Source of the DNA: Campylobacterales bacterium
GTDB taxonomy: Bacteria > Campylobacterota > Campylobacteria > Campylobacterales > Sulfurimonadaceae
Assembly (NCBI GenBank): GCA_024280035.1
Contig: JAJRQV010000054.1
Span: 1 to 45,208 of the forward strand
DNA: 45,208 bases
Reading direction: 5' to 3'
Part shown: one piece after another, positions 37,937 through 41,800 of the stretch
Layout of the letters: each line of letters opens with the position of its first letter
Numbering within the stretch: position 1 is the first letter of the stretch
The notes under the pieces: model-generated
What the model saw: only the letters and a program-made list of their open reading frames with translations
Database searches by the model: none
What the model was told of the DNA's origin: nothing
Program-made: the position numbers and the translations under genes

Positions 37937-38042
37937 TTATTGATTTCTTATTTCTAATATTAATAACCTTATTTCTATTATTGCCTTTCAATTTCAGTGT
38001 TTTAATCATTTATTTTTTTTATTTCTGTAGTTATTTTATTGT

Positions 38043-38625
38043 GGTGCTCTCTTACTTTCTTCGACCGCGAATGAAAGTAATCAAAACTAGCCATGGTGAT
38101 TTTCCAAAGGAAAAAGTTTCTTTAGTAAAGAAGCTCTCTCAATGGCTTTGAACTCGGTAGCTACAGAGTGCCTTCATTCCACTTTATTTTTTCCTAAAAA
38201 CTCAAAACTCGCTTTGCTCAGACAGTTGAGTTTTTTTAACGGAAACAATAAAGTTCCATTCAGTTCTGTAGATGTTTCAATGCAAGTAGATAAGGTAACG
38301 CATCTATTAATGTAAAAGCTTTGCTTTTATCCCTGCCTAACATAACAAAGAATAAAACTATTCTAAAAGATGTTTCACAGAAACCTTAGTTTCTGAATTA
38401 ATAGTGCGTTACCGCTTGGGATGTGGCAGAGCATCTGCAGAGCCAAAAGGAGAGATAGCTTTAGCGTTAAAAAAATGCAACTGTCTGAGCAAAGCGAGTT
38501 TCAGGTTTTTAGCTAAAGTTTCTTTGCAGAGAGGGCACTTGATAGCGGTCAAGCTTGAAGCCAGCAGAGCGAGCTTTTTACTTACCTTTTCGCGACCGAA
38601 AAAGTGAGGGAGTATCATAATAAAA
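38043..38625. repeat. 580-bp imperfect palindromic (MITE-like) element
   Basis: The whole segment folds back on itself. Outer arms 38043-38090 and 38577-38625 match as inverted repeats at roughly 70%. A middle pair contains a perfect 22-base inverted match (38206-38227 against 38479-38500), extended by CGTTAAAAAAA-type sequence on the inner side. Further in, 38294-38310 pairs with 38398-38413 (one base missing) and CTGTAGATG with CATCTGCAG. Small perfect hairpins sit at 38313-38329 (TAAAAGC/GCTTTTA) and 38378-38395 (CAGAAAC/GTTTCTG). The left tip 38052-38080 alone forms TTACTTTC/GAAAGTAA. No transposase is present. Overlapping opposite-strand reading frames at 38404-38618 are by-products of the palindrome. 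Confidence 0.75.
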
Positions 38626-38877
38626 TGGCTACTTAGGTAAAAAATCCAAATGATAAATTATAAGAATATTATATGGGTGTTTTAAAGCTAATAGTAATGT
38701 CTTGATTTCTTTGTCAAAAGTGGAAATTTATTCACTGGGGTGTGATTTCAAGAATCTTAAATGAACTAAACCTCTGACCTTTAAATAAATTTTCAAACAA
38801 TCATTCCTAACAATAACTTTCTTAACTTCTTTTTGATAAAATACTATATATTAAATCATATTTTTTAAGGTGTAAAA
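38626..38877 (+). other. AT-rich spacer before type IIG gene
   Basis: No gene or strong repeat seen. A possible -10 region (TAAAAT or TACTAT, about 38837-38846) and the AAGGTG ribosome binding site at 38867-38872 lie at its right end. Confidence 0.5.
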
Positions 38878-41800
38878 TTGTCAATATTTCAAAAATCAGT
38901 TTTAAACAATGCTAGTCAAGATGAAAGCAAAGTAGCTCTTAGATGGGCAGAATATCAAAAGTATTTATCTAAAATAGAATTTATAAAAACTGTTAAAGAA
39001 GAAAAATATCAAGATGGATTTTTAAAAGATATTTTTGAGAACTGCTTAGGCTATACACTTGACAGCACTAACCCTGATGATTTTAATCTTGAAAGAGAAA
39101 AGAAGAACGAAACAGACGGAAAAAAAGCGGATGGTGTTATATATGTAAATAACGAAGTTATCGGCATAATAGAACTTAAAGCACAAGATACTAAAAACCT
39201 TGATAAGATAGAAGCACAAGCATTTAACTATCACAACTCACATTCAAACTCAAAATATATAATTATCTCTAACTTTGATGAATTAAGATTATATATAGAT
39301 AAAAAAACGGCTTATGAAAAGTTTTCACTTTTTAATCTTAACTATGAGGAATTTAAAAAACTTCATCTACTACTATCGTATGAAAGTATCAAAGAGAATA
39401 TTCCACAAAAACTAAAAGACAAATCAGCTTCATTTGAACAAGATATATCTAAAAATTTATATAAAGATTTTTCAGCATTTAGAATACATCTTTTTGAAAA
39501 CTTAGTAAAAAACAACTTGTTAGATAAAGCCTTACTTCTTAGACTTACTCAAAAATTATGCGATAGAATTATATTTATACTATTTGCAGAAGATAGAGGG
39601 CTGTTAACAGCTAATACTATTAAAGAGATACGAGAAAGACATCAAAGTGATGGTTTTGGCGATAGAAGTATGTATGACTACTTCAAACTTTATTTTGATG
39701 CTATAAATAAAGGGAATGAGAGATTAAATATTCCTAAATATAATGGTGGTTTATTTGCGGTAGATGAAACTCTTGATAGTTTAATCATAGATGATAATGT
39801 ACTTGACTTAGAAGCCCAAGCATTAAGTGATTATGATTTTATGAGTGATGTGTCAGTTAATATTTTAGGGCATATTTTTGAGCAAAGTTTAACAGACTTA
39901 GAAGAGATAAATGCTTCAATCAATGATACGGAATTTGACAATAAACAATCCAAAAGAAAAAAAGATGGTGTTTTTTACACTCCTGAATATATAACTAAGT
40001 ATATAGTAGATAATACTCTTGGTAAACTTTGTAATGATAAAAGAGAAGAATTGAATCTTACAGAACTTACAGCACCTAAAAATCCAAAAAAACCCACTAA
40101 AAAAGAGCAAATTACAAAAGACAACTTAGAAGAGTATCTAAACTGGTTATTAAATATAAAAATCTTAGACCCTGCTTGTGGTAGTGGTGCATTTTTAAAT
40201 CAAGCCTTAGACTTCTTAATATCAGAACATAATGCCCTACAAAAAGACCTAGTAGTTATGGGAGATTTAACAGCTTACTATGAGGTAGAAAAATCAATAC
40301 TTGAGAATAATCTTTATGGTGTAGATATAAATGAAGATGCCGTTGAGATAGCTAAACTCTCTTTATGGCTTAGAACAGCAAGTAAAGGGCGAGAACTTAC
40401 TAAACTTGCTGATAAAATTAAGTGTGGGAATAGTCTTATAGATGATAAAAATATTGTTGATAATGCTTTCGTATGGAATGAAGAGTTTTCGGAAGTTTTT
40501 GAAGATGGTGGCTTTGATGTAGTTATCGGTAACCCTCCATATTTAGGTGGAAGAGAATGGAAAAATAAAGAAACAGAAAATTATTTTATTTCAAAATATC
40601 AAGTTGCTGAGTATCAGTTTGATATGTATGTTCTATTTTGGGAGTTAGGCGTTAATCTCATGAGCAATGATGGCTTATTATCATTCATTACCCCAAATAC
40701 TTGGCTTAACAATCAATCAAATACGAAATTAAGAGAATTGATATTAGAAAATACTAGTATTACGGACATAGTAGATTATTCAAAAATAGAAGTTTTTGAT
40801 GATGCCACAGTATTAACAATAATCGCTACATTGAAAAAAGGGACATCAAATGGTAATACACAAGTGTTTCAGCCAATTAACGATGAGTTAATTGAAATAA
40901 ATAGTATTAATCAAAATATTTGGTTACAAAATGACCATCATATTATCAATATAAACTTATCTGAACAAGATAATATATTGTTAAAAAAGATAGAAGCAGT
41001 TTCAAGTGAGTTAGAATCAATTGCAAAAATAAAGTTTGGTGTTAAACTATATGAAAAAGGAAAAGGAAAGCCTAAGCAAGAATCATTATTTTCAAAAGAA
41101 AATATTTATGAAAGTAATGTAAAAATAGATGACTCATACAGAAAATACTTAACTGGAAAAGACATAAATAAATATTCATATTATTGGAATAATACTTGGG
41201 TTAAATATGGAGAAAACTTAGCCGCACCAAGAGAAAGAGAATTATTTAAAAATAAAAGAATTGTTGTGCGGAGAATTGTTGGGGATAGATTAATTTCAAT
41301 GTCTTTAAGTGAAGATTATGTAACAAGTCAATTATTGCAAATTGTTAAATTACATAATGAAGAATTAACCAATGTGGTGACTGCTATTTTAAACTCAAGT
41401 CTCATGATTTATTTTTTTAAGACAAAATATAATAGACAAGAAAAAACATTTCCTGAAATTAGAATCTATGAATTGGCAAGTTTACCAATAATAAAAAATA
41501 TTAACCCTAATATACAACTGAGTGCCAAAGTTGAGTTTATGATACAGCTTAATAAAAATCTAGAAGAAGCAAAATTAAACTTCATGAGCGAATTAGAAAT
41601 AGAAAAAATCCCAAAAAAATTACAAAACTTTGAGGAATTAGATTTTGATGAGTTTATTAAAGAGTATAAAAAAGCTAAAAGATTGAAGTTTGCTGATAAA
41701 CTGGAAGAAAGAAACTTTAAAAATGACTGGAAAGCACTTTTTGAAAATGATAGAAATATAGCATTAGATTTAAAGTCCCAAATTGATATAACAGATAAAG

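What the first reader, a model, noticed from the sequence alone, without database searches (positions are those of the whole stretch)
38043..38625. Large nested palindrome next to rnpB
About 580 bp form one long imperfect stem with nested perfect hairpins, including a perfect 22-base inverted match 250 bp apart. No transposase or real ORF is present. It borders the restriction-modification cargo, so it may be a mobile palindromic element, a recombination hot spot, or a long structured RNA.
Basis: seen in the sequence. Interest (0 to 1): 0.6.

Follow-up and report, generated by a model that had tools for sequence, protein, structure and literature searches.

The report
Gene-less mobile nested DNA palindrome
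A 600-base stretch of DNA beside a housekeeping RNA gene is a gene-free, hairpin-shaped repeat of a kind that inserts between genes and recurs in very distant bacteria, apparently kept symmetrical as DNA rather than made to work as RNA; how it copies itself is still unknown.

Summary
Window 38030-38629 folds into one nearly continuous stem (z about -14), with a perfect 24-nt inverted match 249 nt apart. It is neither a one-off nor a structured RNA. It is one copy of a dispersed, gene-less palindromic family, with many copies of about 450-650 bp in same-genus genomes and shorter relatives in the family. A same-genus copy beside rplA is absent at the intact orthologous site in the window's own genome and in two others. 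The palindrome's two 48-nt tip hairpins match a motif found by exact pattern in Campylobacterota, Clostridia, Fusobacteriota, Bacteroidota, Thermotogota and Marinimicrobia. The motif has a variable 4-bp stem that stays complementary in 96 of 120 copies (10 expected), and was not found in the viral or phage collections. Clostridium species carry dozens of about 210-bp versions with empty sites. Their arms change in concert without wobble bias, which points to DNA-level upkeep, probably template switching, and not to RNA function. The window copy carries a second, 47-nt mobile hairpin at 38083-38129, a genus-specific repeat with about 47 copies. The palindromes show no association with a Y1 transposase. 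The transposition enzyme is unknown. Best filed as a new variant of the REP/MITE-like kind.

The parts
38004..38665 (.). Whole palindromic element by comparison with same-genus copies; boundaries approximate
   Evidence: Alignment A2 with six same-genus copies; left flank AATCATTTATTTTTTTTATTTCTGTAGTT aligns with AATCATCTGAACTTTTTATTTCAGTTG of G001 copies
38030..38629 (.). Continuous imperfect long stem (the palindrome proper)
   Evidence: MFE -245.5, z -14.3
38052..38080 (.). Conserved basal hairpin TTACTTTCTTCGACCGCGAATGAAAGTAA
   Evidence: Conserved in A2 with paired changes
38083..38129 (+). Inserted 47-nt mobile hairpin element (AAAACTAGCCATGGTGATTTTCCAAAGGAAAAAGTTTCTTTAGTAAA) sitting in an A-run of the palindrome arm
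   Evidence: Absent at this point from sister copies L064 and L065 in A2; model R1 finds it at 38083-38129 and about 46 more times in the genome
38194..38241 (+). Left tip unit CTAAAAA-CTCA-AAACTCGCTTTGCTCAGACAGT-TGAG-TTTTTTTAACG
   Evidence: Exact match of the cross-phylum pattern; n4 complementarity test
38465..38512 (-). Right tip unit (CTAAAAACCTGAAACTCGCTTTGCTCAGACAGTTGCATTTTTTTAACG), inverted copy of the left one
   Evidence: Exact pattern match on the minus strand at 38482-38512
38313..38329 (.). Central hairpin 1, TAAAAGCTTTGCTTTTA
   Evidence: fold; conserved in A2
38378..38395 (.). Central hairpin 2, CAGAAACCTTAGTTTCTG
   Evidence: fold; conserved with paired changes in A2

Best explanation
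It is a gene-less, nested, palindromic repeat that spreads as DNA. Shown here: it is multicopy and dispersed between genes; orthologous sites are filled in one genome and empty in others; its tip is a 48-nt hairpin unit shared across bacterial phyla; smaller hairpin elements insert into it, so it grows by nesting. Also shown: its two arms stay complementary through concerted two-sided changes with no preference for G-T over A-C mismatches, so what is maintained is DNA symmetry and not an RNA. Inferred: when the region is single-stranded during replication the arms form a hairpin, and polymerase template switching between arms corrects one arm from the other. The same hairpin intermediate, possibly gripped at the conserved tip by a host or trans-acting factor, lets a copy join a new A/T-rich intergenic site. 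Elements persist where they are tolerated, in Clostridium directly after stop codons, where their outer A-stem-T stem can itself serve as a terminator. The window copy is one such insertion in the variable stretch behind rnpB. It is probably selfish, without a dedicated function for the host.
For: Fold far beyond chance. Copies in own genome and relatives. Same-genus empty site: G001 palindrome L064 beside rplA, with flanks 736 bp apart there but about 90 bp in the own genome and about 85 bp in G003 and G004. Clostridium empty sites at three loci, including one collapsed remnant (L334). Cross-phylum tip unit; its n4 stems are complementary in 96 of 120 copies against a shuffled mean of 10.4 and maximum 20. 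Concerted arm change: 58 pairs, 96.6% paired, 226 two-sided cells, covariation above all 500 shuffles; 225 Watson-Crick double changes against 21 G-T and 35 A-C. Independent arms test 150 against 168. rnpB as RNA control gives G-T 32 against A-C 4. Nested insertions. Template switching homogenises inverted-repeat arms (abstract of PMC8604942).
Against: No transposition intermediate, enzyme or target-site duplication was identified. The empty site of the window copy itself could not be shown, because the stretch behind rnpB differs in every relative. Empty sites are read as gain although loss by palindrome deletion also happens (L334). Concerted arm change can also come from selection on structure. 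The tip unit shows different G-U counts on the two strands when folded as RNA, but that test includes the conserved tip itself. Outside the tip unit, Clostridium and Campylobacterota elements are not clearly homologous.
Confidence: 0.62

Rival explanations
1. It is a conventional MITE: a deletion derivative of a DDE or Y1 transposon, moved in trans by that transposase.
For: Defined ends in Clostridium (AAAAGTATATATTAC...GTAATATATACTTTT), empty sites, short size, no ORF.
Against: No target-site duplication seen at the empty sites. No longer copy with a transposase was met among about 75 loci inspected. Y1 transposase presence is independent of the element (8 of 16 against 22 of 44 genomes, p = 1), and the own genome has none. 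A conserved tip at the centre is not what a transposase would need at the ends.
Confidence: 0.22
2. It is a long structured RNA or an RNA-level 3' element such as a terminator or stabiliser, kept by selection on the transcript.
For: Strong fold; Clostridium copies lie immediately after stop codons with a fixed orientation (36 of 40) and an outer terminator-like stem; covariation.
Against: No wobble or strand bias in arm changes, against 32 to 4 in rnpB. No gene-orientation preference in Campylobacterota. Absent from Rfam. Patchy presence between sister species.
Confidence: 0.1
3. It is a one-off decayed inverted duplication.
For: In the own genome only one other large, shorter copy exists (C51:6038-6278).
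Against: At least ten related copies in G001 and others in G003, G005, G011, G028, with conserved centre and tips.
Confidence: 0.02

Closest known systems
REP sequences, REPINs and BIMEs with RAYT (Y1) transposases
   Same: Short palindromic extragenic repeats, mosaic and nested, no coding capacity, many copies, mobile
   Different: No GTAG or CGTC tag, far longer (200-650 bp), 22-nt loop in the tip unit instead of the 2-20 and 4-5 listed for GTAG and CGTC repeats (PMC3733652), no association with Y1_Tnp genes
MITEs and small mobile sequences (RU, ERIC, Correia type)
   Same: Gene-less, intergenic, presence/absence polymorphism, inverted ends
   Different: Palindromic along nearly the whole length, conserved tip across phyla, no target duplication, no partner transposase found
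GC clusters of yeast mitochondria and repetitive hairpin-forming elements of sponge mitochondria (PMC4478555, PMC2800124)
   Same: Mobile hairpins without genes; they seem to work alike
   Different: Organellar, unrelated sequence, shorter
Potential intrastrand triplex motifs / BoxC (PMC4666352)
   Same: The basal hairpin Y-loop-R-R layout resembles a class II motif
   Different: BoxC is G/C-rich and about 35 nt; triplex formation was not tested here

Membership tests
REP/REPIN (RAYT-mobilised) | GTAG or CGTC tag beside a short (5-13 bp) stem with a short loop | tested here: not met
   Tip unit is CTAAAAA-n4-22 nt-n4'-TTTTCTTAACG; no GTAG or CGTC tag consistently present
REP/REPIN (RAYT-mobilised) | Y1_Tnp (RAYT) gene in the genome | tested here: not met
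   None in the own genome, G003, G022, G033; Fisher p = 1 over 60 genomes
MITE | Terminal inverted repeats and empty orthologous sites | tested here: met
   Clostridium ends and empty sites; G001 against own genome
MITE | Target-site duplication | tested here: inconclusive
   None visible; A/T-rich junctions and flank divergence prevent certainty
MITE | Related autonomous transposon with the same ends | tested here: inconclusive
Structured non-coding RNA | Match to a described RNA family | tested here: not met
   Rfam
Structured non-coding RNA | One-strand wobble bias in covarying stems | tested here: not met
   control rnpB met it
Structured non-coding RNA | A discrete transcript | not testable with these tools
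   No RNA-seq on hand

The most novel reading that the evidence does not exclude
A distinct class of selfish DNA, chromosomal and spread over at least six phyla, defined by a conserved 48-nt DNA hairpin tip. It copies and repairs itself only through replication-linked hairpin template switching, has no transposase of its own, and grows by swallowing smaller mobile hairpins.
Probability: 0.2. Interest if true: 0.85.

Novelty: new variant of a known kind. Interest (0 to 1): 0.6.

Why it matters
Gene-less palindromic repeats are usually tied to one clade and one transposase. Here one short hairpin unit recurs in distant phyla, was not found in the viral or phage collections, and has no visible transposase. 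Its arms evolve in concert at the DNA level. That makes two open questions testable: how transposase-less palindromes spread, and how long palindromes survive in bacterial chromosomes. It also warns that such sequences can be mistaken for structured RNAs on covariation alone.

Tried and rejected
RNA family: no Rfam match, and the strand-bias tests were negative. Energy comparison of the two strands favoured the minus strand in 93 of 107 loci, but that includes the conserved tip; with the tip excluded the bias vanished, so one search was not used as evidence. RAYT link: rejected. Phage or plasmid carriage: no match in phages, one 43-bp match in plasmids, no exact match in viral contigs. Link to the restriction-modification genes: none seen at other copies. 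Terminator function for the window copy: no terminator-like site found within it, and Campylobacterota copies show no gene-orientation preference. Alignment A3 contained one wrongly placed row (L112) and was replaced by A4. Model R1 had no base pairs, so its counts are sequence-only. A full-text search for the tip sequence found no paper, and searches for Campylobacterota or Clostridium palindromic repeats gave nothing matching. The library lacks most subscription papers, so novelty is not proven.

Full report
Observation. Window 38030-38629 is one long imperfect stem: -245.5 kcal/mol against -144.3 +/- 7.1 for shuffles, z -14.3. A perfect 24-nt inverted match (38205-38228 and 38478-38501) lies 249 nt apart (read). 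No ORF of 80 aa lies in it, and no RNA family matches. rnpB ends at 37938, and a restriction-modification enzyme with Eco57I, TaqI_C and MmeI domains starts at 38878.

Copies. The own genome (2.51 Mb, 107 contigs) has a second, shorter large copy at C51:6038-6278 between two convergent genes, and many short matches. Of 60 genomes searched, own included, 16 have matches. G001 has at least ten copies of about 450-650 bp; G003, G005, G011, G028, G033 and G020 have others. Contig lengths suggest that G001 is Arcobacter sp. NORP14 and G003 Campylobacterales Kmv12 (inference). Aligned copies (A2) share the basal hairpin, both tips and the centre.

Tip unit. CTAAAAA-n4-AAACTCGCTNCGCTCAAACAGT-n4'-TTTTCTTAACG was sought by pattern in 84,980 species genomes. 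The copies read out mostly lie at or near the centre of longer palindromes. n4 takes 45 forms and its complement follows in 96 of 120 units; 10.4 are expected from shuffles, maximum 20 of 1000. In 298 genomes of the own phylum the exact pattern occurs in 6, its reversed control in none. It has no exact match in viral contigs, and the whole element has none in phages. On the complementary strand the tip reads GAGCGNAGCGAG, which resembles the very stable DNA mini-hairpin d(GCGNAGC) (own knowledge). My search pattern partly imposes this, and loops in Clostridium vary in length, so it is only a lead. Some copies show nested layers that repeat the CTAAAA.../...TTAACG borders (L158, L162, L120).

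Mobility. G001 copy L064 lies beside rplA. The same two flanks are 736 bp apart there, about 90 bp apart in the own genome (84 and 92% identical flanks) and about 85 bp apart in G003 and G004. In cold-adapted Clostridium species, about 210-bp versions number at least 12-47 per genome in a capped search. At the L131 locus of C. bowmanii, tagluense and CF012 have a plain terminator instead. The L276 locus is empty in four species. At the L271 locus five sister species carry a plain terminator, while tagluense has AAAAAAGTATATATTACTACTAATGCGTAATATATACTTTTTTTT, which reads as the element with its interior deleted. So both gain and internal loss occur. Clostridium copies start within a few tens of bases of a stop codon, with fixed orientation in 36 of 40 and convergent neighbours in 23. 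Campylobacterota copies show no such preference.

DNA, not RNA. For 31 Clostridium copies (A4) and 58 pairs: 96.6% of cells paired, 226 two-sided changes, covariation above all 500 shuffles and far above slid controls. The changes are 225 Watson-Crick swaps, with only 21 G-T and 35 A-C cells. An RNA would favour G-T on its own strand: rnpB gives 32 to 4. In an independent set of arms outside the tip unit, G-T on plus and minus are 150 and 168, p 0.34. The Campylobacterota copies give 79:36 folded on one strand and 72:32 on the other, that is, symmetric. The simplest reading is hairpin template switching, which homogenises arms (abstract of PMC8604942), possibly with selection for symmetry. This is inference.

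A second mobile hairpin inside it. Window 38083-38129 is an insert that sister copies L064 and L065 lack. It belongs to a genus-restricted repeat: 47 matches in the own genome, 72, 29, 16, 7 and 16 in the other five, 0-2 elsewhere. It inserts into A-runs, forms tandem 44-bp arrays at contig ends, and in 3 of 9 cases follows directly on a 29-, 33- or 39-nt repeat of a sequence that recurs 30-61 bp downstream. An even smaller, about 20-nt insert (GTAGCGAAGCGGAGTTTAC and variants) interrupts some G001 palindromes.

What it is not. Not RAYT-driven REP: no Y1_Tnp in the own genome, no association over 60 genomes (8 of 16 against 22 of 44, p 1), no tag. Not a clear MITE: no target duplication or partner transposase found, though the search for a partner was limited. 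Not linked to the restriction-modification genes. The stretch behind rnpB differs in all relatives, so the history of the window copy itself is unresolved.

Verdict. A real, dispersed, mobile, gene-less palindromic DNA family with cross-phylum tip units; a new variant of the REP/MITE-like kind. Mobility and DNA-level upkeep are well supported, the mechanism of spread is not.

Noticed in passing
window 38083-38129; L021-L033; G000:C71 end and C39 start: A genus-restricted 47-nt hairpin repeat, about 47 copies in the own genome, single or in 44-bp tandem arrays, inserted in A-runs.
   Followed up: partly
L030, L031, L032: Exact 29-, 33- and 39-nt direct repeats: the left copy abuts the 47-nt element, the right copy lies 30-61 bp downstream at the neighbouring gene end. 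Far longer than usual target duplications; cause unknown.
   Followed up: partly
L066, L067, L068 (G001): About 20-nt inserts (GTAGCGAAGCGGAGTTTAC-like) interrupt palindromes that are uninterrupted in sister copies.
   Followed up: no
L269, L271, L273, L275, L300, L302, L303, L304: A 14-16 nt perfect palindrome (CGTATTGCAATACG) inserted near the left end of some Clostridium copies.
   Followed up: no
L069 (G001:C20:98150-98745): Two right-half palindromes in inverted order, as if an element had broken or recombined at its centre.
   Followed up: no
G336 and G337 contigs such as C51, C62, C44: Many half-elements lie about 100 bp from contig ends, suggesting that assemblies break at palindrome centres and copies are undercounted.
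   Followed up: no
window 37939-38878; L247-L251: The stretch behind rnpB differs in every same-genus genome, so it is a variable site; in G001 and G004 it looks like a reversed integrase-like gene (not tested).
   Followed up: partly
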